Assembly: GCA_963924555.1 (NCBI GenBank) | Contig: OZ004581.1 | Coordinates: 3,596,001 to 3,660,000 of the forward strand | DNA length: 64,000 bases | DNA from: Crambe crambe | Taxonomy: Eukaryota > Porifera > Demospongiae > Poecilosclerida > Crambeidae | Direction: 5' to 3' | Shown here: piece after piece, positions 9,990 to 48,800 of the stretch | Layout: the number at the start of each line of letters is the position of its first letter | Position numbering within the stretch: position 1 is the stretch's first letter | Translations under genes and position numbers: made by a program | The notes under the pieces: generated by a model | What the model was told of the DNA's origin: nothing | Seen by the model: the letters and a program-made list of their open reading frames with translations, nothing else | The model's database searches: none

Positions 9990-12047
9990 TTAGGTGATCC
10001 AATTTTCCCAATCTTCCAAAGAAAAGCGAGCTTCATCCTCGGACTCTGAATTAGACATTACAGTAGACTTCTCACAACGCTCACGGTACTCATCTTTGTG
10101 GTTGAGTCTCCGTACCTTTTCTTTAGTCCACAGCTCCAATGCACCACCTGCATCCCATTCTGAGAGAGGAGGACCTTCTACATTAATTCTGATGAGCTGA
10201 TCGAGGGTGTCTTCTCCAAGGCAAGTTCGCCGATTAGTCTTAATCAGTTTGAGCCGAGAAATACCCGTTCCAAGTGTCCATTTGACATAGGAAGACAAAA
10301 CAATAACTCTATGACAGGTAGTATATTACTGTATCAACTGCTTCCACTAAATTACTTTATAATCTTCTTGTACAATGTTCACGTATTTTCTTGCATACTC
10401 CACTATGTCGTCCCATTCATCTTGAAGCATTCTCCAGAGGGATTTTAAACCTTTGATAGATTGCTTGAAGAGGTACATGTGCTGTATCACTTCTCTCCCA
10501 ACCATTTGTAGCCAGAATGGTCACTGCATGGGTGAGCAACTCAAGTGTCCTCAAATTCATCTTGAAGCATTCTCCAGAGGGATTTTAAACCTTTGATAGA
10601 TTGCTTGAAGAGGTACATGTGCTGTATCACTTCTCTCCCAACCATTTGTAGCCAGAATGGTCACTGCATGGGTGAGCAACTCAAGTGTCCTCAAACTACA
10701 CAAATCTCATCTTCCTGGAGAATTTTGCAAAGTATGGCACAAGGTTTAAGAAGGTCATGGAAGAAGGCACAGCCTAATAATATTTTGGAGTTCTACCACT
10801 TCAGTCTGTAACCTTTAGCTTTCTGTCTATCTGTGGATTTCATTCTGGAATCTTCTACAATAGCTGTCAAGTGAGTGAAGTATGCCCCAAATCTATTTAT
10901 CACATTCGCTCCAGGGCAGCCACTTTATGACCGAGTTCCACACGCACGCAGAGGGCGAATGCCTCCTCCAGAGGTTTGTGAAGGTTCCAGGCAGGCTTTC
11001 AGCTCGATCACAATATCTTCTAATTCATGGCACTTCTTGAATGATTTTTTATACATGTAGTACATGCGTAAAAGAAGCTCATCAATGTCAGAAAAAAGGT
11101 TGAGTTCAAGGCATCCTTCACGGAAAGTTCGAGCCGATGAGCCAAACACCAAAACATGAAAATCCATGGCACCTCATTCTTAAGGAGCCTCTTTAAACCA
11201 CCTTCAGCCATGTTGGCACTATACATCCATCGCAACCAAAGCCAATCATTTTTTCCTTCCATCGATCTTCAAATCCCATTATATGCTACAGCTTCTTTAA
11301 GAGACTTGAAAAGACGTTCACCTGTTGCACTACTAAGTGTCTTGCACTGAAAAATCTGCTTCTCACTTGAACTTTTCCATCTTCAGAGAAGGGATCAAAG
11401 TGAAGGACCAAGTACATTTCCACTAACACATTGACAGAATCTGTGCTTGCATCAGCTTGAATGCTAAAAAAGTTTGACTTTGATAGGGTTGCTATAAGTA
11501 AATTTTGCTGCTCACAAGCAATAAACTTAACAAAAGTGGAACAGGCTTGGTCATTTTTATACCCATCTTCTAAATTAACACCATGCTGTTCTTCCAGCTC
11601 GCTTATGGACTTCATCTTGGTGAATGCCAGGTTTTCCTTCACTATCGTGTATGCTATATCGAATTTCCTTATAGTCCTTTCAATAGTGGCAGAATCCATG
11701 GAAGACTGAGCCAGACACTTAGCGATAGGTGTGTAGTCACATACATTGGACAATTGGTGCTTCTTAAATAGTGTCCATTCCTGCATGCTCCTTAACCGAT
11801 GGTTAGTAGTGCCATCGATGAAAGCAGACCTGAAATTTCTCATAGATTCAAGTTTATCCTTGAATTGACAGCAGACCGAGCACCTTAATGTTGCTACATG
11901 ATTGCGATCGGCCATATCGAACTTGAACCAAACTGTAGTATTCGGTTCTTTGTTGTTTTCTCTCACCCATTTCTCAACTGTGCACTGCTCTTTTCTTTGA
12001 TAGTGGCTGAAAACAAGGACTAGTAGCACTAGAACTACAAGATTCAC
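9990..12047 (-). pseudogene. hAT-family transposase pseudogene (ZNF862/KIAA1586-like)
   Basis: The minus strand encodes, from 12047 leftwards: a zinc-finger-like start with WFKFDMADR, LRCSVCCQF and RNFRSAFIDGTTNHR; the first catalytic region FSIQADASTDS; after a frameshift near 11,250, WKEKMIGFGCDG and GLKRLLKNEVPW with CLAHRLELSVKDAL; and at 9993-10298 the C-terminal dimerisation region with RLKLIKTNRR and ALELWTKEKVRRL. This is the order of hAT transposases related to vertebrate ZNF862. At least two frameshifts, several stops and an internal 140-bp tandem duplication show that it is dead. TIRs were not found. Confidence 0.8.
10415..10694. repeat. exact 140-bp tandem duplication
   Basis: Two adjacent copies of a 140-bp unit (first at 10415, second at 10555), apparently identical, inside the hAT pseudogene. 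Either a very recent duplication or an assembly artefact. Confidence 0.85.
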
Positions 12048-12477
12048 TAGAAGATAGCCTCTTTCTACCTTGATTGGAGATTTTGTCTGATCAAGAGCAA
12101 TTTTACCCAGTCACGTGCAATGAATAACCGGAAATTGACCGTTATTTCTAGCACTGCTACAAGGATTTTATTTAGCATTTTTTCCCCTTCACTTGTCATA
12201 ATTATTGGCCTTCTGAACTGCTAGTACATGCATAAATAACATCTTTCTAGATTGTAGTGTGTTTTCAACTGTTTCACAGCTATACTTCATACTGGCAGGT
12301 ATTGTGATATTTCCATACTTTGAAGTGCAAAAGGTTTCTGATAAACGAAGCGTGGATAATCAAGGTTCTACCAATACGTAGCTGTAGCTGTCATACTGCT
12401 TGTATTAGAAGGTATGGTTTATAGCTAATTATTGATTTGACTTACCAATGAAAATTTCATTCCTGTAATATTCTAGA

Positions 12478-12692
12478 TGCCTCTTTCTTGTGTCCAAGAG
12501 TGGCGGGCTCGTACTGGCTCCTGCTGGTGTGTTCTTGGCCGACCTGCTAAATGTAGGTCTCCCTTTCGTGGAAAGGAGAGTCAGCCATCTCAAACCTCGT
12601 CTTTCACTACCTTTTTCCTGATACTACTTTCAGCAATGAATTTTGGGATGATATTGGATCTCATAAATGCAACTTGCCATCTTCTGAATTGG
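12478..12692 (+). pseudogene. unrecognised coding-like fragment with one frameshift
   Basis: Follows an acceptor-like AATATTCTAG and ends at GTAAGT. One frame reads VSKSGGLVLAPAGVFLADLL and continues to about 12,605; the next frame then takes over at a T run (DTTFSNEFWDDIGSHKCNL). The two together look like one protein interrupted by a single-base change. No domain recognised; it may be another transposon ORF. Confidence 0.3.
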
Positions 12693-12892
12693 AGTAAGTA
12701 CAGTTTATTGAAAAATGTGATGATATTGCCACAAGGAATAATTACCTACACTAGTATAATTGTACATGCATCTTTACATAGGTGTGAATACGTTGATATT
12801 GTTGGTCACATGACTTGTGACCAATTTAGATCCTCTGAAAAATGTGCTTTAAATAACACTTCTCAGTGTTTATTTGAAGGTACATAGAAACC

Positions 12893-14267: not shown

Positions 14268-14348
14268 AATTTTTCTGGGCCCATGTGTACCTTCAACCAT
14301 TGGAAACCCTTCTTATTGTATGTACGAGTCAGAAGCTAATTTCTAAAG
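14268..14348 (+). CDS. possible upstream coding exon of the NLR gene
   Basis: An 81-nt stretch sits between a pyrimidine-rich acceptor (CTTTCTACAG) and a GTGAGA donor. It is open only in the frame that enters and leaves in phase 1, which is the phase of the following exons. It would join an extension of the next exon, which has its own candidate acceptor at 14402-14403 (AATACAG) and stays open from 14404 into the ATG at 14457. If both are used, the protein starts further upstream and the peptide ahead of the 2A site is longer. The alternative is simple initiation at 14457. No recognisable domain. Confidence 0.35.
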
Positions 14349-14456
14349 GTGAGACTCATGACAGCTAAATGCAATTAATGTGACTTCACTTTCTGTAATA
14401 CAGTAAAGAATACCTACAAGTTATTTCATCAAAAAATAGCGTGGTATTGTCAAGAA

Positions 14457-14622
14457 ATGTTTGAATGTCAGATATTTCAATTGAACTACACAGTGAAGTC
14501 TGTACATATAAAAGTAGCTACAGCTGTGGTTTCTGTAGCATTTATTGCTGCCAGTATCATCTTCTATCTACTACTGCTCTCTGGGGATGTGGAATTGAAC
14601 CCTGGGCCAGCCATTTTCTCTG
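14457..14622 (+). CDS. NLR gene exon: hydrophobic leader ending in a 2A-like motif
   Basis: Codes for 55 residues plus one base. Residues 20-41 form an uninterrupted hydrophobic stretch ending in LLLL, followed directly by SGDVELNPGP (G43 to P51). This matches the 2A consensus D-V/I-E-x-N-P-G-P, at which ribosomes can skip the Gly-Pro bond so that translation continues as a new chain starting with proline. The exon ends 13 nt after the proline codon at a GTAAGG donor, phase 1. Known: 2A-like motifs occur in viruses, in non-LTR retrotransposon ORFs, and (from memory) in some sea urchin NLR proteins where they overlap a signal sequence. A LINE-derived origin is possible, but the reading frame splices cleanly into the NLR exons and no endonuclease domain follows. 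Confidence 0.75.
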
Positions 14623-17600
14623 GTAAGGACTATAGTTAAATCCTTGAATCGTATATGGACATGAGATAGCTACTATTTCCTTTTGTAGTTTCATTCTTCC
14701 TTTGCTTCATTGGGATGACTTCTCTCCACCTAGTGCATGCGCTACCAGTCATTCGTCAAGTGATGAGTGACAACAGCACTACAGGAGAAGGTGCAACTGG
14801 TAGCACATCCCTCCCTCCATCCCTCTCTGGTACGTGGTATTCTATAATAATTATTATGTAACATTATCCAAATAATTGTAATGTTAACTCAGGTAATTCT
14901 GATAGTGAGATTGCCGGAATTGTAACAGGTGTCATTGGACTTTTTATTGCTATTGCTGTCTTTGGCTTAAATCTGTGGAAATATTGCCATCATCCAGGTA
15001 TAATGTTAACAGGATAATTAATTTACTTGTGCACGATGATGTTTGTTAGGGTCAAAAGGTTATCTTACTAGGGCAATGTGCAACATAATTTGACAGCAGT
15101 GCTTCAACTCTTTAGAAGATTTTGCTGTTGAATTTATATGTAACAAAGATAAGCCTAGAGCCTCTACAACTATTACTATAGCAATGTGCAGCATTTGACA
15201 GTGAGCAAGTGAGCAGCTGATAGGCTCCAGTGCTTCATATTGCTGTCAGAGACAAGAGTCATGTCAGTGGTGCTCCCATGCAAGCTGTATATACTTACCA
15301 CAAGCACTTAGATAAGCCAAGCGCCTATAACCCACTTAGATAAGCCTAGCCCCTCCATGACAAAAAGCTGTATCTAGCTCAATTACAATTGGAGCATGCT
15401 CTACTAATTCAGGATGCCTGGGGCATTTTGGAGTGTACTATAGACCTAGATATGTATACAATTTCAATAAGTCATGACCTGAGAGTCAGCTCCCTCACTG
15501 AATGATTAACAGCAGTCTGATTTGTTCAGGGTAGAGTTAAGTACTATAGCTAGCAATATTGATAATGCTTACAAATTTTGGGCTAGAAGTTAGGGTACAA
15601 GCCATCCACCCCAGTAGATTGAACCCTGTATAGTGCTGTGCTTAGAATTAAAAGGAATATCGTACATGTTGGCTTGTCACAGAGCCCAGTATCCAAAAAC
15701 CATTTGTAGGTAGGATTGATTCTTGTTTCCTCTGGCCTTAGTATAGCATCCTTTCTGCACTGGGATGCTACAGCTCAGGACCCGTGGGATTCTAAATGCC
15801 ATAGACTCCTCTTGAATTCAGAGCCCATACAGATCTCCTAGGAAACATGCAGGAAGTCATTTATAAATCATGTCCATTCTGGGGTCTTTACTATTTTTTC
15901 CTCCTTAGTGCGTCTCGAAATTGAACCTAGTGGTACCAAGGTCAGTGGAAAAAATTACTCTCTAACATGTTCTGCCACGACTGAGATTCCTTGTGACAAA
16001 TTTGAATTTTCTTGGGTCAGTGATGCAGAAGAAAAGGTTGCTCCTATTGCTACAAGTGATAAAAAGGGCGAACTGTTATTCAACCCCCTGAAAAGTTCTC
16101 ATAAAGGAACGTACACTTGTAAATGTTCAGTAAAGCAGAGATGTGGATGCTTTCCAGGGAAACTGCTTCCAAACTTACACAGTACGATATCATACTACTT
16201 GGATGTACCTGGTAAGCACCTATCATAAAGTGCCATGTTGTGAATAGATTATGTGTGTATACCAATCTAAAATTAATTGCAACCCTAAAATGCTACACAA
16301 GAAAATGCATAGTGTATTGTAAATACTGAATATTTTGGTAATTGGCTTGATAGATAGGGACTAGGGTTATGCTTTGGGAGTCTCACACAAGTGGTTCAAA
16401 GAACCTCAAGTCCATGAGGCTGCTATGAAGGTTACAAGCTACCTACATACCACAAGATGGATCCAGGGTCCTATCCCCCAGTCTGTGTTAACTCTTTTAT
16501 GATATGAAAAACCCTATAGTAGTTTGGCATATGTCCAGTCATTATTTGTTTGTCAGGACAAAAGTACACAGTATTTAAGAAGCATTAATTGCTGGTCACA
16601 TAAAACTGTGCTTTAAACTGCAACTTGCACTCAGTGAAGCCACAGAGTGCACCCAGGCTCAGTCACTGAGACTTGGCCAGCTGCTCAATACTTCACCTGT
16701 TCAGTAAAATGCAACCAGAAATGTAGTCAATGGAAGGTGGTGTCTTCCAACTAAACCACATTGAAATCAAACAATGGCAGTCAATTTGTGGCTGCTATAA
16801 CAGTGCTTAGGATTAGAAATTGATATTGACCAGACATGATATCCCCACAAAGTATAATTTGTCCTACCTTTTGGTGGGTATTATTGGCGACTTGTTAATT
16901 TAGCGAATTTAGCGAATAGGCCTTTATTCGCTAATAATAAGTACGCGCTAATAATAAAATTTCGTATAATTAGAAGTAATATTGAACAATACTGACAGAG
17001 TTAGCTAGCTAGCTAGATCACTGTTGTCTTCATCAGAGTCTGTTTCAAATACTCTGATTTAATGGACTCGAGAATGGCAGCAGTAGGATGGAAAAGGCAA
17101 GAGTGACAGGTATGATAGATTGAAGTATCACTATTCCCAGTGAAGATCCTTTTTGTTCAATCTACAGAATCTAACTCTCCAATGATAGTTACTGACACAA
17201 TAATGCATGTATTGTTTGTGCCTGATATTTTTTGAAGCAACTTCATATGAAACTAGATTAACAAGTTAGTCTTTAAAAAGACTAGGAATGCCTCAGCACG
17301 TACTTAAGTGCATAAATGCTTTTACAGTGAATATATAAAGAGACGATAAAGATACACTGAGGGATCACTGGCTTAAAGCCAGAGTCCTACTAGGATGATT
17401 GTTTGGAATTGCTGAACACTTGCTGCATGGGCATAAATAATGAAAAGTGCAGGGGTTTGCGAGGTCAAATGTTGCCAAAATATTTCTCTCAGCTTCTTTT
17501 TAATTCAATGCGCACCGAGCAACATGGCTTATTATCATTATTTACACAGCTAGTATTCTTGCTTTCGAACTGCCGTTTTGAATGGTTATTCTCACGCATA

Positions 17601-20600
17601 GCTTGATTGAAGTATGTGTACTGGATTCTCTCATTAAGTCTTAGTTCTGAGATTCTCCTTCACCATGGCTCTCTCTTTGGCACTTAAAACGATCACTAGT
17701 TTGTGTACACTGCAATCTCTTTGGCACTTCAAACGATCACTAGTTTGTGTACACTGCAATCTCTGTTGTTTTTGTTCACTCTCGATACGCATCATCTTGC
17801 ATCATTGATATTGCACGTGTGCGTGAAACATACCATGTCTACCATCGCCTTAGTCGCTTTCAGCACTGTGCCTCGGCACCAAAGTGCCGAGGCAAAAATA
17901 GCTATTACACAAAGCTCAAAATAGCTAAAATTAATACCCGCCAAATACGGTCTCGCTAAAATTAGTAGCCGCCAATAATACCCACCTTAAGGTAACATTT
18001 AACTGGACATTGTATCAGTGTGCATTTTGACCAGTACTTTTGTCCTGACAAACAAGAGTGGGCTGGCTCACGAGACTAAGCTTTTCTGGCTAAAATCTCT
18101 TCAAGTACAATATACACTCATGGCTGAGTTTCTCTGCAATGGTAGTGTTCTTGAGTATTTAATTTCCCCTCAGTTGTAGAGTAGGAAGTGCTAGTCAATA
18201 TGAAACTGTAATTTTCAACTGCAGCATCTCATAGCTGGTGCAACTACTCGCCTCATTAACTCATGAGCAAACAACCTTAAAATAAAAGTTTGAAATGTAG
18301 TATTTCGAGGAAGATACCAAGCATATTCACAGAAATCGGTGGAGTTGCAGCAAATCAAGTTGTGTCTAGCCTCATTAAAAAAAGGATATGGCAGAACTGA
18401 ATGGATTTAGACGTGCTGGAATTTGCAAGCTATAGAGATGCTGAGAAAGTGTCTGAAAGAAATGAGAATATGATAATGAATCTTATGAGTTCCAGCAATG
18501 AGAGTGACTGCTAGCTAAAAATACCATAGATTATTATGTCTCATGCACTACTTTAGCTTGACCTTTGCTTTGAACAATAGGCTACACGAAATCTCTAGGC
18601 CTCCTTGAGGTAAATCTGCTGAGTGCATTCTTCTTCCAGTTACTGTGGAGCATATGGATCCTCTTCTTCTTAGAAAGAGTGAGGCAATCTTTTGAAATCT
18701 TTCTTGGAAGATGTCCAATAATGGTAACAGCAACAGTGTACCTATCTGTGACAGAGTTGATAATGGAATAAATGTTTAAGGGCTCTGACATCCCACCCAT
18801 GTGCTTGTTTTGCAGGTTGCGAGGGATTGATATCAAAACTACCGAAACTTGCAGAGATAAGCTACAACACCAACAAGAGGTGTTCGATCTCAACACCTCT
18901 TTGTACCCGACGTCTGCTCACCCAGACTAGCTCTAGAGTTAGTCTCCTTCAAGTGCAATCCTAACCTTGTGGTTTTCCACAATCATGTTCCTGTTATTAG
19001 TGCTTGTCATTAGTTGCACACATGCGTAGTCATGTCAGTGCACGCACTCGTAGTCATGTCAGAGTCCCCTTAATAAACAAAGAGAAAACTGGCTGAATCA
19101 AAATGAATGTTCGCAACAACTGAGAATTTTGAATTCTGTCTCTGTGGTTATGAAATACTCCCTTTTATAGGGACAGACTGACTTCCTCTGATTGGTTGAA
19201 TGTTTGTCCAATAACTAGATATCTTGATGATTTTGCATACTGCTTCAGGTGAATGAATGATGATAGTAATTATATGATTACAGAATTATGGTTACAATAC
19301 TTACAGTTTATAATAGTTTGTCTTTCACACTATTGCTAGACTCTTCTGGAAGAAAACTGTTCTCTGCATGCCATTCAAATCTATAATTGAACCAGCTAGC
19401 TAGCTCTGGCATGTTTGTTATCATGTGCACATTATGTACTATTTTTAAATCATCGGAGCATGTTTATGAATTTTAATTTTGCAATATGTGAAATTATTTT
19501 TAACATGAATATTATGGTATACATACTGACCATGTAAACATCATAAAATTAATTGATACTTTCAGAGCCAAGCATTTCGACCACTCTTAAAGATAATATG
19601 ATTCCGACACTGGGAGAGCAGTACTCACTGGAGTGCACAATAACTGGAAAAAACTATCTCATTGATGGTACGACTTGTGAAATAGCATGGTGCAAGAATG
19701 GAGAAAAATTTCACACAGATAATCCTCAATTATCGAATACTAAATCTGTTAAGTACGAATTTGGATTCCTCAAAGTATCTCATAAGGGACGCTACACATG
19801 TAAAGTCACCATTAAATGTGGTCCAGAAATAATCCTCGAAACCACAAGTGATCCCAAGGATGTTCGACTAAGTGGTATGTCATTGTTTATGTCTATAATT
19901 ATAGCAATATCAGACTCAGTTAATGTGTGTTTACTGACAGGGTTTCATATAGCAGAGGGGCAGAGGGGAGATCCCCCTCTGATTGAAATTTCCCCCATAA
20001 ACCAATTACTGAATGTGTCTTTACGGATCTCTATATAGCACATTTTTTCCTCACACAAGCACACCTTCATGCACTCTATCCAAAATTCCTGTATGAAACC
20101 CTGACTGACAAATGGCAACAACATGAAAAGCTGCATCCATGGATACTATACACTCTAAATAATAGTTTGTCATAGGATATGTGTAACTCCTAGTGTGACT
20201 GTAATGAATTTTATGAAACCATAAATTAAAAAAACAGTCATTATGACGAGGATTTACGCATATATGTGACAGTCCCAAGTAGAAATCAAATATTAGATGC
20301 ATTAATTCTTGGCCACTTAAATATTTGTTCTAAAAAAAGTAGAGATGGCTATGTGCAGTTCAAAAGAGTTCAGCAACAAGAGAGTGAACTTCAGTCAAGT
20401 TACCCCTTACATATCACCAATATTACCCCTTACCATCACCAATATTACCAAACTATGAGCTAACTATTCCTACTTCACTCCCATACATGACAGGCCAAGA
20501 TGAGATATAAAGAGCTCATAGTTTGGTAATATTGGCGATGGGTAAGGGGTTCCTTGACTGAAGTTCACTCTCTTGTTGCTGAACTTTTTTGAACTGCACA

Positions 20601-23600
20601 CAGCTATCCCTACTTTTGCATAAATATTTTTCCTTATTACTTGTTTATCACTTTTTTTGATGTAATGTTTATTATAGGCATGCAATGCTGTGATCCTGCT
20701 ATCCAAGTTAAAGTTCATGTATTGTAGCTATGTAGTTCATTGAAAGTTTCATCATTATAATTATATGAGCCGAAATGAATCCGATCTGGAAGAATCTATA
20801 CAGTTTAATAGGATTTCCATTGACCTAATTTTGTATATAAATTTTTAAGGCCTTTACTGATATGTACCTGATATGCTGTTGTATCAAGGGTTGATTCATA
20901 ACCAGATGAGACTAGTGCCTAGGGTTTATATTTTGAGCATCGAGAGACCAATGAAAAGCTAATGACAGCTTAGCTAGTCTGTTGTGAGATTGGTCCAATA
21001 ATCATGTGTACAGGGGTGGGGCATAAAAATGTAACGTAGGTTGAAAGCTAGCAGTTGGAAAATGACATGCTATTTTGGAATATGTTGAGTTAAAGGTAAA
21101 GGATTATAGCGCAGTCAATTCTGAGTAGTTGGTATAACAAGTTAAAGACTAGGAATGCCTCGGCACAACTTCAGTGCAACCTTTATTATTATTAAACTTT
21201 CTAAATAATGTGCACTGAGCAACATGGCTTATTGTAGTAAGGTTTGTATTTACACAGCTAGTATTCTTGCTGTTCAATGCTTTCAAACTGCCGTTTTGAA
21301 TGATTCTCACACATGCTTGATTGAAGTATATGTGATAGTACTTGAGAAAAGGGGTCTTATCGTGCAAAAATTCAAAACGGAGTTATTGGTATCATTCTAA
21401 AGCTCTTAAACTGGAGATGTACATGGCTTTTAAATCATATGTGACCCAATTTGAGAAAAAGGACCACTTCACGCAGAATTTCAAAATGGAGTTATTAGTA
21501 CCACGCTATAGCCCATTGCCTTAGACGTTCATTGATACTACGCTTGAAGCTAGATCTTAAACCACCGCGGAGCTATAAGCGCTAGAAGTGCATCGCCTCA
21601 GAGAAGGATTCAGTAAGCGTTTTGCGTCTAAACATTGAACTTCCGGTAAATACCCAATTCTCAGTAAATCTCTACGTGAGTCCGTATAATACGATGACAT
21701 CATTCAATTTTTCTTACCTCGTGTAGCAGCTGGGCAGAGAAGAAGTAGTCTTAGCTTTACTGCGTTCTTATCTTTGAGCGTTTGGGTTATCTAAGATATG
21801 CAAGACATGGGACAAGCTCTAAACAATGATCAGGTAAAGTTTGGGTAGATAGCTGTTTGTAAATGCATAGTGTACAGTAGTTTTAAAATACTGGTAAGTT
21901 TTTCTCCATGTTTTAAGCTTTATCAGTTGATTCGTGTGGAAGCAGTGTTTGTCTGGGTTGGAATCTAGACACTGGTGGGATCAAGACTGTGTTTTTCATT
22001 GTCAACAGGCCTGGAGTTGAAGGAGACAGATGAACTTCATTCAGCACCTCCAGATCGGGATTTTCTGACCTGTGAAGTTGGATGGCTTCTACCACAGCCT
22101 CTTCCTATCTGTAGCTAGCCAAATATGTGTAGCTAAGTTGTGTATTCAGTAGAAATCACCGATATGAAAATTCATTATTATGTGGGGATTTTCCCTTATT
22201 TCCGCGCACTATGCTCTTACGTCCTCCGTAATTTAACGAAGTAGGCTAGTCCCACAGGCATATTACAGTGGGGCATTGAACTCTGTGAGCTCTAGTTAAT
22301 TCGTTTATAATCTGAAATGGTTAGGCAAATAGAGAGTGCAATCAAAATGTTTTGATGACCACACCCACTTATAATTAAGTGATCAACAGTTTGCCATCAA
22401 CTACAATATTGATACTATATGGTAAAAAGATATTTGAAGCACATTAAGTTAGTAGTGCATGGTGGTGGTGGTGGTGGTGGTGGTACTTACTGTCCTATAC
22501 CATAGTATACTATTTTACTGTCATGGTATCACATTTTGCATTTTCCAGAACCAAAACTCAAAGCTACTTTATATCTTCATCCAAATGATGATGACCTAGT
22601 TCTGGGAAAAGATTATGAACTGCAATGCAAGCCTGAATTGGATATTCCAGGAATGTATATTAGTCGTTTCAGACTTGATTGTACCTGTGATTGGCACAAA
22701 GAAGGAGAACTCACAGACATTAAAGAAGAAAGTTTTAGCTTGGAATCTTTCAAATTTTCTGATGCTGGACGCTATGCTTGTACAGTTACTGTTAAATCTG
22801 ATCTTCTTGATAGTCCCCTTGAGTTAACAGAAGAAATAGATGTGAAACCAAGACTAGGTAAGACATTATGTAAGTTATGTTCTGTCCGATCAAAGGAATG
22901 CATTGTGTAAAGCAAGAATTTGTGCCAATTTATGGATGTTTGATGGTGGAGTCTGATGTAAACATCCCGAAGGCATAGGCATAAGTAATTTAGACTCTAT
23001 ATATAGCTGTCAAGAACTGAGCAATCTGACTAGTCAGAGCAGATGATGTAAATCACATATTAGCCTCTGGACCTTGGATAAATCTTAGATCTGATCAGAT
23101 TAGATGTTGTATTAGCATAATGGGCGCACGTGAGCTGTTTCCAATCCTGTGTACGTAGTCTAATTATCTAAGGATAAATTGTATCTATTGGGGGGGGAGG
23201 GGGGGAGGAGGGAGAGGCAGGAGATCCCTCAGAATTCCTGATCCTGAGTCCTGGTGCTTCTATGCTCAGTAATTACCAAATCTATATTCCAATTACTGCA
23301 GCGAAAAAATGCCAGGAAGAAATGAAGAAGATGTATGAAGAGATGCAGTTTGATCCCATTGATGAACAGTGGACGATGGATCATGTTATCAAACTTTCAC
23401 TTGAGAATCAGAAACCTGGAGCTGGAAATGAAGGAACTCTAGAAGTTTCAAAGATTTACGAATCCTCTGAACACATCAGAGTAATTAAGGGGAAACCTGG
23501 AGCTGGAAAAACTACACTTATGAGAAAAATTAGTAATGACTGGTCACTTGGAAAGATCAAAGAGTTTTCAGAAAAGATACTCGTTCTGGTTATAATCAGA

Positions 23601-26600
23601 GATCTTCATCAAAACTACAGTGTAGAAAACATCATAAATCAATCATGCTCATTGTTGAGCAGCAGAAAGCGTGAATACCTTCTTCAATGTCTTGACAGTG
23701 GTCAAGGAGAGGATTTTGTGTTTTTATTGGATGGATTAGATGAATATCAAGACAAAGATTCCAATGCACCATACATTGAAGATATTCTAAGTGAGAATAA
23801 GTTGAAGAAAGCCACAATTATTGCTACATCCAGATACTCTGCCTACTTACTCAAAAAAATTATCAGAAAAAATAATGCCTGCTATTTAGAAATCAAAGGT
23901 TTTCTTGAAGATGAAGTATTTGATTACTTTAAAGAACGTTTTAAGGAGGATAATGACAAATGTAGTGAAGTGAAAAGATATCTAACAGAAAATCCTAACA
24001 TGGTGAGGTTATGCTATATACCCTTACACTGTGCTATTATGGCAAATATATTTGAAGAACATGAAAAAAAAGATCAACCTAAGACGGAAACACAGTTTTT
24101 CGAGATGCATACAAGATGTAGAATTGTCCGATCAGTACATAGACAGGGTGATAGTAGTTTTCAACCACTAACACTTGATGAACTTGAGGGTAAAAACAAA
24201 GAACTATTTGATTATATTTGCAAGTTAGCATACCATGCAACAATGGAAAATACACAAAGTTTAGATGAGAAGGATCTAAAGAGGCTCAAACTTAAGCGTG
24301 ATAATTTCCGTTCAGATCAGGCTAATATAAATGGAGGCCAAAACATGCTAGGGTTACTTGTTATTACCCCCGATAAACCACGAGGTTTACTTATCAACAA
24401 ATACAGTTTTACTCATCTCGCTGTTCAAGAATTCTGTGCAGCGTTTCACATTGCTAAACTGCCACAGCAAAGTATAACTGAGATCATCAAGGATGAGAAA
24501 CGCCGTAATCGCCTCAATTCTGTGTGGAAGTTTATTTGTGGACTATTAGACTTCACTAAGAACTGTGCATTGCAAGCATTTCATAATCTAATGGAAGAAT
24601 ATACAAATGAAAGAAAAAATTTGCTTTTCAAGATTCAGTGTGCTCATGAGACTCAGGAAAAAGAGCCATGTATAGACCTTTATAATTCCATCAAAGTTAT
24701 TGAAATCCCTTGCATGACACCACCAGAACTTTCATTTTTCATGGGTACGATGAAAATATTAGGGAGTGCGAACACCGAACTTCCAAATCTTGAAAGAATC
24801 AGGTGAGTGTCATTGATATGGCTGGTATATACAGCAAGCATAATCATACAGTACAATGCAGTTTTATCATGCTCTAGTCAAATCATACGTAGCTATAATG
24901 TCATAGGGTAGTCGTAAATAAATCTTGTTGTAGAAAGTGTAAATAGCAGTGGATGCACAGAAGTACTTAATTTAACAACAATTCTTCCAGTGTTTACCAT
25001 GGTTCTACTAAATACAATCCATTTATATAGTGTACTAATTACATGGTATGTAAGCAAAATAGCAAGTTTGTAGTGAAGATGAGATTTACTCTCCATATCC
25101 CTACACAGCCTTGGTAACAACAAGATTGAAGATGAAGGAGCCGAGATTCTCTCTGGAGCCTTGAGGAATATGCCCATGCTTCAGGTTTTAGAGTAAGTTG
25201 ACCTATGTACAGCTAACTACAACAGAACTCAGTGTCCAACTTACACTGATTAATATTCATGTTGCTGATACAATATAACAAGTAAGCTAATTACATGTGA
25301 GCTGTAACTACATGAGGGAAAAAACATTGGGGAAAAAATTGTAAGGATGACCATTGTTCAAAAAAAGTAAGCAAACAAGGGTAGAGGGATGAAGGGGGGT
25401 TAATCTTTGTTCTGTATATCCAACCTACATAATACATCACAGGTACTGATAATGTATTGTTGGCTGGATTTAGAACATAGTTCAGTGGTTTTACGATATT
25501 TCTAACTGACTTCGAAAGGAACGACAGCAGGTTTTCTAAGTGCCTAACAGTAGGTTTTCTAGGTGCCCCAGGCTCTTAGAAAACCTACTGTTAGGCACTT
25601 AGAAAGCTTACTGTTAGGCATTATCTTGTTTATGTTACTATAGCTACTAATGTGATCACCAGGAGATGCGAAAAAAAAAGTATTGATTGTTTCTTTTTGT
25701 GTTTTGTATAAGTAAATATAATCATGATCATGGAATGATTAAGATAGCTAGATTTAGCTACATACATAGCTAAAATATGATCAAAGTGTTTGTTCTATCG
25801 AAGTTACTGAGCTGATCCAGCATTGTAGTTGTTGAAGTTAATGTTAATGGTACTGCATGAGTTAAAAGTGAAAGATCCTGTTTTTGAGGCCAAGCAATTT
25901 GGGAGGGAGAGAGTATTGCTATTTGTCAGTGATGGCATAAGAGCACTTATTGCCATCTGATCTTCTTTTGGCTCTGTAAGTGCAACATCTGTGCATTAAA
26001 TCCCTGAATTCCACAAGCCTTGCACATACTACTTTTGGCTTTACTTTTCGACCTTTGATTCTTCCTGGACGGTTTTTGGAAATATCTTCTGTGTACAACA
26101 GGTAGGACTTCTCACCTGGTTTTTTAATTACTTGAATCTGACATGGGTTGTGTCGTAAATTTCTGTGCTCGTCCCACTGCGTAGAGCAAAATATAGGCTG
26201 TTCATGTAGATGATGGTATTAAGTAAAGATTGAGGACTGTGGTCACCTAAAATCTTCTCTTTCCACAATAATTCCTCCTCGTCTTCAGTGATTGCCTCAG
26301 CTTGCCTGTGCACAGACCCCAGTCCTTTTGATTACAACCGTTTCATTTCTGCATCTAGACTTCCACAAAATCCAAAATGTCAACAGTCTTTCCGCAACCT
26401 AGACCAGAAGTCCATTGACGTAATACAAATTTTTTTCGGTATAATATTGCGCACTCAACCCACGAATTAATTCTAATTCTGGGTAAATGGTGCGGATTTT
26501 ACAGGCTATTACAGGAATCGCGCTAAAACATAGAAACCATCGACAGCCCTCAGGCCCTTAGTAGCACCCTCGCTTCGCTTGGGATGCTACAGCCTCAGGC

Positions 26601-29600
26601 CTTCGGGTGTCTAAATTACTTAGATCCCTTGGTCTCACTGTCTAACTATTATATACAGAACAAAGATTGACCCCCTTCTACCCTTGTTAGTTCATTCATT
26701 AGTAAGTACATTTGGCAATGGAAAGAGGGTTGGGGAAGCTGCAATAGTTGTGGGTTGACTGCTCACCGGATGGTTCGTGGAGGCTTGAGACAATTGAGAG
26801 AAACTATATATCATGTCGGCCATTGATGTTGATGGCATTGTAGTGTAAGTATACTATACAAGAACCATCATAAGGCTGCTGTAGTGGTTTCCTGACAGCA
26901 TTATATCAAATGGAGACATGCATGGAAAAGGCTAGAGCATATGGCTTCATTCTGACTGAGTTAAAGTGAAACATTCACTGGGAGATATAGACTAGTGCAA
27001 AACACCAACTCAGCAGCAGTAAATAAAGGAGATAGGAGATCCCATGTATGTTTTTTAATGTCAGTAATGCCTCTCCACATGGTACCTAAAAAGGACCCCC
27101 AGAGATTGGCATCCTTAAGCTTGCGGTGACTACCGCTGCCCTGAACAATGCTATTGTTCCCAATCATTACGTCACATCCAAGATTTCATATCTACACTAT
27201 ACAGGGCACTATTCAGGGGATGGCTCTGGCATATTGTGGTCAGGCCAAGGGGTTATTACCAGTTGCTGGACAGGCTATACCCAGTTCCATCATGTGCTCA
27301 ATTCCTGATTAGCAATTTGTAGTGATTCAGGAGCTAGTTGACGAGGACCGGCAGTCTTGATGTGGTGTATCACACTGTGCTTGACTGGGAAATCAATGGA
27401 GATCAGCAATGATGAAGACCCATCAGAAATTATGGTGAAGGCTGAGGTCAAGGGTGAGCAAACAAGTTCCAAAAGTTGCTATTGTGTAGTTGCTTGAAGG
27501 CTGAAATTTTCTTGTTGATGTGTCAACTTGGTATGTGAAGGAGGTATCACACTGACTTCCACACCAGTAACAATAAGGAAATGGAGGTTGGTACAGTGAT
27601 TGTTAATATAATGGACTACTAGTTGTAGGCCAGTAGACTTGACCACTTCCTGGAGACGCATAACCTCAAATCGAAGCTGCTCCACTTCTATATTGTGTTT
27701 GGCTGTTACAGTGGGGATGAAGTAACCACTTTCACCACCCTGTCAGCTAGTTCTACCAGTGTCAGCAGCAGAGGCTCAAACTATGGAGAGCGTCAGACAT
27801 TAGCTAGGAGAAATTCTCAGAGGAAAGCACCATCAGTGATTCCAGCTCAGTCTCCTAATAACTGCTGCATCTGAGAAAGCAATTATGTTGGCTTGCAGTC
27901 CCCTATATAGCTCTTCTTTAGTGCCCTGTAGTTTAGATATGAAATCTTGGATGTGAGGTAATGATCAGTGATAGTAGCATTGTTTAGGGCACGGTAGTCA
28001 TGTGGAGAGGTTATTACCAGTTGCTGAAAACTATTAGCTCACATTGCAAAATTTGTAAGAGAAATTGATAGCAAGTTTTGTCGAGATAGGTTCCTCCTAG
28101 TGTAGGTTTATGCTCTGTGGATTTTTGGCTGGTTTTAGTGATGTATTAGCAGGATACAAAACCTATATAATACCATACTCTATCCAAAAAATTTCCATCT
28201 GAGAGTCAGCTCATTCACTTCACTTCCTCACTGAATTACTTGAACATTTTGCATTATTCCCTAACTACAGTAGCCATACTCCATCAGGAAGTCCCTGATC
28301 ATGACCTAGTCTAATGAGATTGTATCCCAAACTTAGTTATGTTTAGAATAGAAAATACTGTTGTAACTATTTTGTATATCATAAGACTTTAAGTGCTGCA
28401 TGCACAGAGCTAGTGAATCATTCAATAATATCCTTTCACAGCCTTGGAGAGAAGATTGGAGATGGAGGATCTGAAGTCTTGGAGAGCATGACACAACTTA
28501 AAGAGTTAAGGTGAGTTGCAATGATATATTCTTACAAGCCACACCCACTAGTATATATATAGTACATTTATCCCATAGACAAGCCATTGAATAAATCCCC
28601 ATATTCAATGATTTCATGGAATACTGAGCACTCTATAAACTTTATTAGGCCACTATTAATGGAATCCTAGTTTCCTGTCCAAGAAGGCATCCACAAGTGC
28701 TACAGGCGGGAGGTTATTAATTATTGCTTTGTTGTTTGTCTCAAAGGTCCTGTCTTGATCATTCACCATGGGCTTTCTCAAAAGAGCTGTATGATGTCCA
28801 AACTGCTGCACTCTACTGCACTCATGAGCAGTATTTAGCAGTAATAATATTTTTTGATGTGGTGACATTTTCAATATGCGGGCGGTGGACAGGAAACAAT
28901 CATTCCATTAATAGTGGCCTTATTAACTTCTACCAAAGACTCTATGAACATCTACAATGTATTGTTGTCAGCTGTGAGCGAATAAATCACTTATTACAAG
29001 CCACAAGTCAGTGTGAGATATGGCAATTAATTTCATAAGCCGAAGGCAAGTGACATATCTCACAGCTGACAAGTGTAATAAGTGATTTATTCGCTCATGC
29101 ACAGCTGACAACAATACAAGAATATAGAAATTCATAGAGTCTTCTGCAGAAGTTAACAACAATATTTATAGAGTGCCATGAAATATAACTGTTGAGTGTG
29201 TCTATGGGACAAATTTACTAGTGGGTGTGGCTTATCAGAACAATAAGTATATATTATACACATACTAGGTACATTAGGAAAGTTGTTGAATAGCTTGAAA
29301 CAACAATTTGGAAAGTTTCAAACTCGTGCATGCTTCCGTTGCACGATTGTTTTGCATTGCCCTAGTGTACTGAATTGCAAGCTTTTCTCTTGCTCTTCAA
29401 TTAGTGTTCTTTTACAGTTATAGTGTGTACTCTGATGACTCTACATCCGTAATCATCTCTGGCTATGTTTCTTGTGCAGTGGCTCCTTTATAAAGCTATG
29501 AAAAATATTCCAAATGGTTTAACTTTTGAAGTCTTGCATGTGTCGATTGATTTTCAAGGTCTTGTAGGTCAAGCTAGTGCTCGCTATACTTGAAGCACAG

Positions 29601-45800: not shown

Positions 45801-48800
45801 CCATGTGAGCAGGGCAGGTGGGAACAGCTTGTCATCACGCAGGCAGGTGTTGATGCAGGTAGCATTGAGACAAAAAAAGAAAAAGCTTGGCAGGCAGGGA
45901 CAGGTCATCAACATGCAAGCAGGTGTTGATGTGAACAGAGCTAGTGTATATGTATATAGATATACATACATATTAAAAAAAAGAAAAAGGTTTATGTTGT
46001 GTGGTATGTAGGGACAGAGCTGGGGGATATGCCAAATGCAGAACAGCTGCAGAGGCTGGCAGCGGCGAGGAGCAGTGCAGCAGCAGTACAGGGACCAGAG
46101 GGGGGTGAGCAGATCACCACTGGTGACAAAGCAGCGGAGAAGCCTGGAGCAGTGGTGCCATTGGGCCAGGGACTTCCAGCATTGCCTAAGAAAACCGTAG
46201 ATCGCATTCGGTCCTACGAGTATGTGGATTTTACTGAGCTGCCCCCAGCCAAAGGAAAGATGCGAGCAATCCCTCAAAGCGTGGAGGGTCAGATTATTGT
46301 AGTCCAAGCAGAGGACTTGATGCAGTCCAAAAAATTGATCCCAGACCTCCCCACTTGGCTACAGTGTTTCGCTCTGTATGTAACAGTAGCAGCAAAGCAC
46401 CAGCCGGAAAGGATTCCTGACCTCATGGCCTACATGAACTCCATAGCCAAAGCCAGCAAGATATATAAGTGGCCAGCATGGGTGGTCTACGATCAAAACT
46501 TTAGGCAGGAGGTGGCAGGCTCGAGAGAGGCAGTTTGGGCAAGAGTAGACCCCAGCATCTACTCCCAATGCTTCCTGGGCATGGCAAGGAACACGGAAGG
46601 GTGGTGCCAGAAGTGCCAATCGTTGGACCATGCCTCAGAAGACTGTCCATCAGCACGCAGCTTGTCAAGGAAGAGGCCATAGCAGGGGTCAGCCAGTCAA
46701 CCAGCAGGTAGCCAGAAGCAAGTGTGCCTCAAGTTTAATAGATTTGATGGTGACTGCCACTACGGGGCACATTGCAAGTTCTTACATGTGTGCACAACCT
46801 GCAAGGGGGATCACCCCGTCAAGCGTTGCACGGCTGGACATCCCAAGTCTGCAGAGGCAAGGGGAATGGGTCCCCGTTGATGCAGTCATATATGCGAAAC
46901 AAGGGCAGAGACCAGTAAATGTGTGCTAGTTAGGAGTATGTGCTAATCTATCATAAAAATTGAAAACAAACAATAATAAGAATAATAATAATAAATTAAA
47001 TAATTACGAAATAAGGGGGTGGGTTTACTAGGCAGATCTGTCCCCGTACCGGCATACCCCTAGCCTCCCCTATCCCGCTTCACCCCCCCTTTTCCTCATC
47101 CCACTCTCCCCAATCACAGAACAATACCCTTACCTGAGGAGGCTGCAAACCCTCAATAGTGACCTGGTGACTGCACATGTGGCAATGCCAGAGGAGCTGA
47201 AGAGGATTACATCCCCTCTATGTGTTGAATTTTGGAGAGCCCAGCTAGGCAGGCACCCTGTTCAAGAATTTGCCCACCTGATCCTAAAGGGAATGGAGCA
47301 GGGCTTTAAGATTGGGTTCAACTATGGCTCTCACCAGCTGAAATCAAAGAATTCCAATATGCTCTCAGCTGTGACTCAGGCAGGTGTGGTGACGAGTTAC
47401 CTGGAGGAGGAGAGTAGGCTTGGTCGCATTGTTGCTGTTGGCCGGCTCGAGGAGGCCAGGAGGTTGGGAGTTCATATAAGCCCATTTGGGGTGATCCCTA
47501 AAAAGAATAAGCCAAACAAGTGGCGCCTGATATTGGACTTGTCATCCCCTCAGGGCAGCAGCGTGAACGATGGTATCAGCAAGGAGCTGTGCAGCCTCAG
47601 CTATGTTTCAGTTGATGATGTAGCAAAGAAGCTGGACCATTTCATCAGATTAAGCATTAGCGCTAGGTCTGACATCGAATGGTGGCATCAGTTCGCAAGC
47701 TCCTGGAATGGAGTAGCCATGATGACTCCAAGTTACAGGTGCTGGACACAAAGGGAAGTCACATCAGATGCCTCAGGGAAGTGGGGGTGTGGCGCCTTTT
47801 GTGGGAAAGAGTGGTTTCAGCTAAGCTGGATGGAAGCCGTCAGAGACACTCATATAACCTGTAAGGAACTCATCCCAATTGTAGTGGCGGCAGCAATATG
47901 GGGTGAAAACTGGACAGGAATGGCAGTAAAGTTCAGGTGCGACAACTCAGCAGTGGTAGCAATTGTGAACAAGGATACCAGCAGAGATAAAGAGGTGATG
48001 CATCTCGTAAGGTGCTTGGCTTTCATTTCGGCAAGGTACCAGTTCCAGGCATATGCAGTACATGTACCAGGGGTAGAGAACACTCTTTGTCCAGGAATAA
48101 TTTACCCCTGTTTCGATCAACCTACCCGCAGGCAAACCGAGAACCCTCCCCAATTCCCTCAGAGCTGCTAGACCTCCTACTAATTTCAAAGCCGGATTGG
48201 ATCTCAGAACAGTGGACGAGTCTGTGGAGTTCTACTTTCACAATGGTCTAGCACCTTCTACGCAAAGGGCATACGCATCTGCAAAGAGACGGTATAAGGT
48301 GTTCTACGCACAATATAAGTTGTTCCCTCTCCCGGCTTCAGAGCATCAGCTGTGTCAATTTGTGTCTGTGTTAGCTAAAGATAACCTTTCTCATAGTACA
48401 ATAAAATCTTATTTGGCCGCAGTTAGGCACCTGCACATTGAGGAGGGAGGTGGGGATCCAAAGATTTGTAACATGGCCCGACTGGAGCAAGTGCTAAAAG
48501 GCATAAAATTAACTCAAGCCAATGGCCCAAAAAGGATGAACCCCCGGCTCCCAATAACGCCGGAAATATTGCAAAAAGTTAAACAGACGTGGGAAAAAGG
48601 GAAGTTAGACTTCGACAAACATATGATATGGGCTGCAGCATTGGTGTGTTTTTTTGGATTTCTACGGGCGGGGGAAATATGTGTCCCTTCAGACAAGGGA
48701 TTTGATGAAGGTGCCCACCTAACAGCAGCCGACTTAACATTTGACAATATCCTTAACCCAAATGTGCTGCAGATTCGCATAAAGGCATCCAAAACAGACC

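What the first reader, a model, noticed from the sequence alone, without database searches (positions are those of the whole stretch)
14457..14829. 2A-like ribosome-skipping motif at the leader of an NLR-type gene, followed by a second signal-like segment
GDVELNPGP sits at the end of a hydrophobic leader, and the very next exon supplies another hydrophobic, signal-peptide-like stretch. With skipping, a 50-residue hydrophobic peptide and a separate receptor with its own targeting signal would be made from one ORF; without skipping, one chain with up to three hydrophobic segments results. One gene could thus yield two receptor topologies in a ratio set by skipping efficiency. The motif and frames are seen directly; 2A chemistry is established; dual topology is inference. 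A 2A overlapping a signal sequence is, from memory, reported for sea urchin NLRs, so the Ig-containing sponge form is the potentially new part.
Basis: partly seen in the sequence, partly recalled or inferred. Interest (0 to 1): 0.93.

Follow-up and report, generated by a model that had tools for sequence, protein, structure and literature searches.

The report
Ribosome-skipping leader on sponge immune receptors
A demosponge immune-type receptor gene appears to start with a membrane leader that ends in a ribosome-skipping (2A) motif, so one message should yield a leader protein and a separate receptor with its own export signal; the same motif recurs many times in this genome.

Summary
In detail: GDVELNPGP is in frame in an exon (14404-14622) that splices in phase to a signal-like exon (14689-14829), then TM, three Ig, NACHT and LRR exons. 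The likely start is ATG 12477, in an exon that a genome search found only in this cluster (at 7 of 9 2A sites, plus a fragment). The predicted leader is thus about 167 residues with two hydrophobic spans. Six Amphimedon queenslandica NACHT proteins share the plan (WRAxxG N-terminus, one or two spans, 2A, NACHT).

The second span plus 2A is protein-invariant in nine copies (6 synonymous, 0 nonsynonymous variable sites). LLLLSG-DVELNPGP resembles a Leu-rich class with an example active in vitro. The skipped receptor would begin with a 23-residue signal peptide (V-x-A site). Ig and NACHT probably face the cytosol with or without skipping, which weakens 'two topologies'; charges support this only modestly.

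The genome holds at least 181 D(V/I/M)ExNPGP sites (reversed controls 0), many in same-strand arrays, some ahead of NACHT or ankyrin ORFs. No RNA or translation data exist; skipping is inferred. New variant of a known kind.

The parts
12477..12693 (+). Predicted first coding exon: MPLSC(V/I)QEWRARTGSCWC... with first hydrophobic span; in-frame TAG directly before the ATG; donor A|GTAAGT, phase 1
   Evidence: 7 full copies found in the genome, each 1.4-4.6 kb upstream of a C1 2A site on the same strand; weakly resembles N-termini of A. queenslandica 2A-NACHT proteins
14268..14348 (+). Predicted second coding exon (FFWAHVYLQPLETLLIVC...), phase 1-1
   Evidence: No indels among 9 copies and open in phase
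14404..14622 (+). 2A exon: variable part, second hydrophobic span, 2A motif, AIFS
   Evidence: donor GT in 7 of 9 copies, GC in 2 of 9
14586..14609 (+). 2A/StopGo core octapeptide DVELNPGP preceded by LLLLSG; predicted skip between Gly (14604-14606) and Pro (14607-14609)
14689..14829 (+). Signal-peptide-like exon: SFFLCFIGMTSLHLVHA | Ser/Thr-rich stalk with N-x-T sequon
   Evidence: Present in 8 of 8 paralogs; V-x-A (VHA in 8, VYA in 1) and the N-x-T sequon kept in 9 of 9 copies including the window
14893..14997 (+). Transmembrane exon (IAGIVTGVIGLFIAIAVFG)
   Evidence: matched in 8 of 8 paralogs
15909..16211 (+). Ig domain exon 1
   Evidence: Pfam Ig_3 1.6e-6, just below cut-off, and ig 1e-4, above it; Ig_3 1.1e-14 over the assembled protein
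19566..19874 (+). Ig domain exon 2
   Evidence: Pfam I-set 5.2e-6, above cut-off
22549..22857 (+). Ig-like domain exon 3 (weaker)
   Evidence: Pfam Ig_3 0.002, below curated cut-off
23302..24802 (+). NACHT exon
   Evidence: Pfam NACHT 5.2e-18
25109..25192 (+). LRR-like exon
   Evidence: LRR_4 6.6e-4, below curated cut-off; splice sites
28442..28510 (+). LRR-like exon (last one modelled; gene probably continues)
   Evidence: Splice sites and phase

Best explanation
The gene is a cellular StopGo (2A) polyprotein. Exons 12477-12693, 14268-14348 and 14404-14622 encode a leader of about 167 residues: a Cys/Arg-rich N-terminus with WRAR, a first membrane span (about 45-63), a sequon-bearing loop, and a second span (about 140-158) running into LLLLSG-DVELNPG. 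At Gly-Pro the ribosome usually skips the bond and frees the leader as a two-pass membrane protein. It then makes a receptor that begins Pro-AIFSVSFFLCFIGMTSLHLVHA, a signal peptide at the very N-terminus, which re-engages the translocon. Signal peptidase would leave a short Ser/Thr-rich stalk with a glycosylation sequon, one TM, and cytosolic Ig x3-NACHT-LRR. Leader and receptor are thus made from one message in a ratio set by the skip; when skipping fails they stay joined until or unless signal peptidase cuts after VHA. Shown: open exons, phases, conservation, motif class, domain order, paralogs. Inferred: transcript, skipping, topology, cleavage, role in immunity.
For: Motif in frame with conserved splice sites. 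Span plus 2A (33 codons): 6 synonymous and 0 nonsynonymous variable sites among 9 copies, against 5 and 17 in the upstream part of the same exon (Fisher p 0.0012; pN 0.000, pS 0.089). Leaving out the 8 core codons, which the motif search itself selected for: 5 and 0 against 5 and 17, p 0.0031. A search with the leader protein instead of the motif pattern found the 2A exon at 9 places (E 0.01 or better), the same 9 that have the motif. LLLLSG-like Leu-rich motifs with Asp at p12 are a named upstream class, and a tested example (motif 6) was active in reticulocyte lysate (PMC12846837 section 10). 8 of 8 paralogs carry the signal-like exon, the TM exon and at least two Ig-matching exons in order; NACHT lies within the fetched 10 kb in 4 of 8. 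Exon 12477: 8 matches in the genome, 7 full copies beside 7 of the 9 C1 2A sites, plus one fragment. A. queenslandica models P0001-3 and P0005-7 have the leader-2A-NACHT plan. Hydropathy spans at 45-63, 140-158, 170-188, 226-244; sequons at 64, 127, 201. In 36 of 37 distinct fetched 2A contexts the pair before D is (A/S/C)G, and 37 of 37 are Leu-rich.
Against: No RNA or protein data. The join of exon 12477 to exon 14268 is predicted, and 2 of 9 2A sites (C1:3553873, C1:3712375) lack that exon in the search. The similarity of exon 12477 to Amphimedon N-termini is weak (25, 14, 17 and 3 of 2000 shuffles score as high for the four tested). Two of the six Amphimedon proteins (P0006, P0007) show only one leader span by my threshold, and P0007 lacks the Leu-rich context. 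The leader loop has the same net charge (+5) as the N-terminus, and the 15 residues after the TM are net 0 against -2 before it, so positive-inside gives only modest support for the drawn topology. Only 27 of 37 fetched 2A contexts have a strongly hydrophobic 15-residue stretch (KD 1.6 or more) before the motif. 2A can be inhibited when the chain upstream is being translocated (PMC2978324). No SignalP or TM predictor was available; only hydropathy was used.
Confidence: 0.5

Rival explanations
1. Dual-targeting switch as in sea urchin NLRs: partial skipping splits one receptor between two sites or two topologies, the ratio set by skipping efficiency.
For: Demonstrated for sea urchin N-terminal 2A signal sequences with reporters (PMC4981915). 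In the A. queenslandica homologues no span of KD 1.6 or more follows the 2A within the first 300 residues, so skipping there would give a cytosolic receptor and failure a membrane-tethered one.
Against: In the window gene the product after 2A has its own signal-like sequence and TM, so it should reach the membrane either way; two spans upstream would leave the following orientation unchanged.
Confidence: 0.22
2. 2A is mostly inactive in place because the upstream chain is engaged with the translocon; the fused polyprotein is instead cut by signal peptidase after VHA, and the stretch is kept for membrane insertion.
For: Inhibition of 2A by ER-translocated upstream sequence is reported (PMC2978324); the V-x-A site is kept in 9 of 9 copies.
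Against: A protein search that did not require the motif found 9 copies of the exon, the same 9 as the motif search, and the (A/S/C)G pair is kept in 36 of 37 contexts; membrane insertion alone would not require either. The core itself in those 37 was selected by the search pattern and is no evidence. In A. queenslandica homologues no signal-like span was seen after the 2A, yet it is kept.
Confidence: 0.17
3. The 2A exon is a captured retroelement ORF fragment with no role in the receptor.
For: 2A-like sequences occur in non-LTR retrotransposons (stated in PMC4981915).
Against: No reverse transcriptase family matched the 9 window ORFs scanned, of 27 of 100 aa or more. The exon has conserved splice sites, is under purifying selection, and lies in nine same-strand copies followed by the same receptor exons. 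Many other 2A sites also lie in same-strand arrays. No genome-wide search for reverse transcriptase was made.
Confidence: 0.05
4. One reading: translation starts at M14457, giving a 50-residue hydrophobic peptide.
For: In this copy ATG 14457 is in frame.
Against: Val in 7 and Ala in 1 of the 8 paralogs; the open frame and triplet-only indels extend upstream of it.
Confidence: 0.06

Closest known systems
2A-like signal sequences of Strongylocentrotus purpuratus NLRs (Roulston et al. 2016, PMC4981915; passages, abstract and introduction, and Discussion seen)
   Same: 2A motif near the N-terminus of a NACHT-type receptor, coupled to a hydrophobic sequence; large gene family (about 35%, 85 of 241 NLRs, and 14 of 87 current NCBI entries with the 26-aa N-terminal form).
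   Different: There a 26-residue peptide is itself the signal. Here the 2A ends a predicted 167-residue leader, and the released receptor has its own signal-like sequence, TM and Ig domains. The words sponge, porifera and Amphimedon do not occur in that paper.
Viral StopGo elements of the LLLLSG-like class (PMC12846837; abstract, introduction, one passage and section 10 seen)
   Same: Hexapeptide LLLLSG followed by DVExNPGP; p12 = D with Gly at p11.
   Different: Cellular, spliced, N-terminal to an immune-type receptor. [quoted passage not shown]
A. queenslandica NACHT proteins P0001-P0003 and P0005-P0007 (among them LOC109588079, LOC109586976, LOC109586971)
   Same: WRAxxG N-terminus, one or two hydrophobic spans, (S/T)GDVELNPGP with NPGP at 88-131, then NACHT (Pfam rechecked for 3 of 6).
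   Different: No span after the 2A in the first 300 residues, no Ig family in the 3 of 6 scanned; receptors 24% identical where aligned. P0007 lacks the Leu-rich (A/S/C)G context; P0001 and P0002 share one N-terminus.
AjNLRC4, sea cucumber Ig-TM-NACHT receptor (PMC8699970; passages seen)
   Same: Ig and NACHT in one membrane receptor.
   Different: Ig domains extracellular, TM between Ig and NACHT, no LRR. Here the TM precedes the Ig domains, so Ig and NACHT are predicted on the same side. The terms NPGP, 2A-like and ribosome skipping do not occur in its text.

Membership tests
StopGo/2A element | Core octapeptide (D/G/C/N)(V/I)ExNPGP in frame | tested here: met
   DVELNPGP in 9 of 9 C1 copies
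StopGo/2A element | Permissive upstream context | tested here: met
   LLLLSG, matches a published Leu-rich class with an active example; activity of this exact sequence not measured
StopGo/2A element | Co-translational separation without a stop codon | not testable with these tools
   Needs a translation assay
Sea-urchin-type 2A signal sequence | About 26-residue 2A peptide at the extreme N-terminus acting as the signal | tested here: not met
   2A core at residues 161-168 of the predicted chain; even within the 2A exon alone it is preceded by about 60 residues
Sea-urchin-type 2A signal sequence | NACHT-type receptor downstream | tested here: met
   NACHT 5.2e-18
NLR (bona fide) | NACHT plus C-terminal LRR | tested here: inconclusive
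   NACHT clear; LRR_4 6.6e-4, below curated cut-off, on two exons; gene end not modelled
NLR (bona fide) | N-terminal death-fold effector domain | tested here: not met
   Ig domains instead; no death-fold family among the 20 families at E 0.1 or better
Ig-NACHT membrane receptor (AjNLRC4 type) | TM between Ig and NACHT | tested here: not met
   TM exon precedes the Ig exons; no 19-residue stretch of KD 1.2 or more between residues 253 and 793

The most novel reading that the evidence does not exclude
Demosponges use StopGo as a general module for immune-type receptors. In this genome at least 181 sites, in several unrelated leader families and ahead of more than one receptor class, would each mark a gene translated as a two-part polyprotein: a membrane leader co-made with a receptor. 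The leader may be a partner, chaperone, anchor or stress-controlled gate of the receptor. That would exceed the 85 NLRs reported for the sea urchin.
Probability: 0.35. Interest if true: 0.92.

Novelty: new variant of a known kind. Interest (0 to 1): 0.78.

Why it matters
Cellular 2A use is described as very rare (PMC12846837 introduction), and the one characterised cellular receptor case that I met in the held papers is the sea urchin NLRs. A demosponge genome with at least 181 motif sites, under purifying selection in the one family tested and shared in plan with A. queenslandica, would make 2A an old or repeatedly gained way to build two-part immune receptors in animals. It raises a testable question: what does the released leader do, and does stress shift the skip, fuse or stop outcomes?

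Tried and rejected
Rejected: start at M14457. An extra exon at about 12781-12881 is open in the window and L033, but frame-broken in L035, and L029, L030 and L032 carry one-base and 18-base gaps there, so it was left out. LINE origin: no support in what was scanned. The NACHT family search scored 103 of 232 candidates, and none of the listed places lies in this C1 cluster, so I give no genome-wide NACHT count. A database search with the predicted 1039-aa chain gave 4 proteins at E 0.001 or better, identity 23-24%. Species: COX1 from contig C119 matches at best 86% (unnamed) and 84% (Demospongiae) in the listed 120 of 7756, so demosponge, species not named. Pfam found nothing at E 1 in the region after the C9-type 2A (L044), nor at E 0.01 in 4 of the 10 other downstream ORFs tried. 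Paper searches on 2A and sponges: searches listed 20 papers each of 173, 78, 404 and 473, one search listed 10 of 13, 2 of 2, 6 of 6. By title and abstract start, and by passages of the three that looked closest (where the terms proved unrelated), none concerned 2A in sponges. Most subscription papers are not held. I recall, from no call, that 2A-like sequences in invertebrate retrotransposons were surveyed around 2013.

Full report
WHAT IS THERE. The motif GDVELNPGP is at 14583-14609 on the + strand, in frame at the end of a hydrophobic stretch. The exon ends at 14622 with GT, and the next exon runs 14689-14829. Joins from the 2A exon to NACHT are phase 1: 14404-14622, 14689-14829, 14893-14997 (TM), 15909-16211, 19566-19874 and 22549-22857 (Ig), 23302-24802 (NACHT), then LRR-like exons 25109-25192 and 28442-28510. 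Pfam gives NACHT 5.2e-18, Ig on exons 1 and 2, a weaker Ig on exon 3, and LRR_4 6.6e-4, below its cut-off.

IS IT MORE THAN CHANCE. The DNA pattern for DVExNPGP has 167 matches in the 143.1-Mb assembly and 0 in the reversed-pattern control. Patterns for D(V/I/M)ExNPGP with x = Thr, x = Leu/Phe, and x of a third codon set (all 26 listed are Ser) gave 97, 51 and 26, controls 0. With the 7 DVEVNPGP sites in the partial listing that is at least 181; one of them is DMELNPGP, not a canonical core. Many lie in same-strand arrays: 9 of 9 on + at C1:3.55-3.99 Mb, 6 of 6 on - at C6:8.28-8.36 Mb, 15 of 15 on - at C8:0.60-1.09 Mb.

WHERE THE PROTEIN STARTS. The frame is open upstream to an acceptor before 14404. 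Indels in 14404-14622 are 3, 9 or 12 bases, while the 5' flank has 1, 2, 3, 4, 5, 10, 16 and 20 and the two introns have 1, 2 and 38. Exon 14268-14348 has no indels among nine copies and is open in the matching phase. Further up, 12477-12693 starts with ATG directly after an in-frame TAG and ends with a phase-1 donor. A genome search with its 72 residues (E up to 10) gave 8 matches: 7 full-length copies, each 1.4-4.6 kb before a C1 2A site on the same strand (7 of 9 sites), and one fragment. The DNA pattern for WRAR(I/T)G has 14 matches, 7 of them these, against 1 in the controls. The joined leader is 167 residues to the Gly of NPG|P.

COUSINS IN A NAMED SPONGE. Of the 4 proteins found with the predicted chain, 3 are A. 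queenslandica NACHT proteins, 24% identical over 35% of the query; the fourth is unnamed. A search with residues 1-150 of one gave six proteins, all A. queenslandica, and all six have (S/T)GDVELNPGP, with NPGP at 88-131, after an N-terminus MID(V/L).QWRASIG. Four of the six show two leader spans at my threshold; P0006 and P0007 show one. P0001 and P0002 share one N-terminus and may be one gene. Similarity of exon 12477 to these N-termini is weak though placed alike: 25, 14, 17 and 3 of 2000 shuffles score as high, for the four proteins tested. COX1 of the window's assembly is nearest to an unnamed protein (86%) and to Demospongiae (84%), so this is another demosponge.

SELECTION. In the 33 codons from KVATAVV to NPGP, nine copies differ at 6 sites, all synonymous; the upstream part of the same exon has 5 synonymous and 17 nonsynonymous variable sites (Fisher p 0.0012; chance of all six synonymous 0.0012). 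Pairwise pN is 0.000 and pS 0.089 there, against pN/pS 0.69 in the upstream part. Because the copies were first found by the motif, I also left out the 8 core codons: 5 and 0 against 5 and 17, p 0.0031. A search by leader protein found the 2A exon at 9 places, the same 9. The copies are related, so sites rather than pairs are the honest count, and 6 sites are few.

PARALOGS. In the eight other C1 copies fetched with 10 kb each, the signal-like exon and the TM exon match in 8 of 8, at least two Ig-matching exons in 8 of 8, and NACHT lies within the fetched stretch in 4 of 8. The V-x-A before the predicted cleavage point (VHA in 8, VYA in 1) and the N-x-T in the stalk are kept in 9 of 9 including the window.

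HOW IT MOST LIKELY WORKS. Published work places LLLLSG-like hexapeptides among the upstream classes, with Asp at p12; four classes were tested, one of them Leu-rich (motif 6), and all four wild types were active in reticulocyte lysate (PMC12846837 section 10). The window has exactly LLLLSG-DVELNPGP. Of 37 distinct 2A contexts fetched from this genome, 36 end (A/S/C)G, 37 are Leu-rich, and 27 have a 15-residue stretch of KD 1.6 or more. In the 1112-residue model, hydropathy gives spans at 45-63, 140-158, 170-188 and 226-244, with sequons at 64, 127 and 201. I infer a leader hairpin with its loop in the lumen, a skip at the cytosolic end of the second span, and a receptor starting Pro-AIFSVSFFLCFIGMTSLHLVHA that needs and has its own signal. 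A cleaved signal followed by a TM leaves Ig, NACHT and LRR in the cytosol. Charges fit only modestly: N-terminus +5 but loop also +5; -2 before the TM, 0 after it over 15 residues. Without skipping, two leader spans return the chain to the cytosolic side and signal peptidase could still cut after VHA, so the receptor would end up alike. This weakens the two-topology idea for this gene, but not for the Amphimedon relatives, where no span follows the 2A in the first 300 residues. Against easy skipping: upstream chains entering the ER can inhibit 2A (PMC2978324 passages).

BEYOND THIS GENE. Other 2A sites lie ahead of other receptor-like ORFs. In the C6 array, L025 and L028 have ankyrin-repeat ORFs of 1083 and 1036 residues, and L023 has a weak Death match (0.0054, below cut-off) before an ORF that is ankyrin-like by eye. 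Same-strand NACHT domains follow 2A sites at C12:668135 (0.9 kb), C16:2088616 (1.7 kb), C21:1489881 (4.2 kb), C9:8373101 (5.1 kb) and C8:6449150 (10.5 kb); whether they are one gene was not modelled. L019 and L021 precede ORFs with P-loop-like sequence by eye but no convincing Pfam family. I sampled 37 distinct contexts of at least 181 sites, so the spread of receptor classes is not counted.

KNOWN OR NEW. The sea urchin NLR 2A signal sequences are the direct precedent for mechanism and gene type. What differs is the long leader, the separate signal-like sequence and Ig domains after the 2A, a shared plan in two demosponges, and the number of sites. The papers listed (partial lists for most) included none on 2A in sponges; the three closest by word match were checked by passages and were unrelated. 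The D. avara NLR paper does not contain NPGP or 2A-like but notes TM domains in sponge NLR architectures (passages). I file it as a new variant of a known kind.

Noticed in passing
whole assembly G000 (window = C1:3596001-3660000): At least 181 D(V/I/M)ExNPGP-coding sites, 0 in reversed controls, many in same-strand arrays with several leader families that look unrelated; some lie ahead of NACHT or ankyrin ORFs.
   Followed up: partly
L040, L042, L043, L048, L049, L053 (C5, C8, C10, C11, C21): A repeated leader type: hydrophobic stretch, Cys-rich CSCTMCTNH-like stretch (shorter in L049), then LLILAG-DVETNPGP (LLILGG in L048, TLLLCG in L049); the stretch before its 2A is only moderately hydrophobic (KD 0.99-1.39).
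   Followed up: partly
L044 (C9:306138-307138, minus): DVESNPGP followed in the same frame by a hydrophobic stretch and a region that looks death-domain-like by eye; Pfam found no family.
   Followed up: partly
L001 and L003, end of the 2A exon: GC instead of GT at the donor in 2 of 9 copies; the same two sites (C1:3553873 and C1:3712375) also lack the upstream exon in the genome search.
   Followed up: no
window 45960-49171, +: Neighbouring ORFs with a weak zinc-knuckle match (0.12) and a phage-integrase-type match (8.9e-6, just below cut-off): probably a mobile element.
   Followed up: no
window 11286-12110, -: 274-aa open frame without a Pfam match; looks like a transposase-derived fragment by eye.
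   Followed up: no
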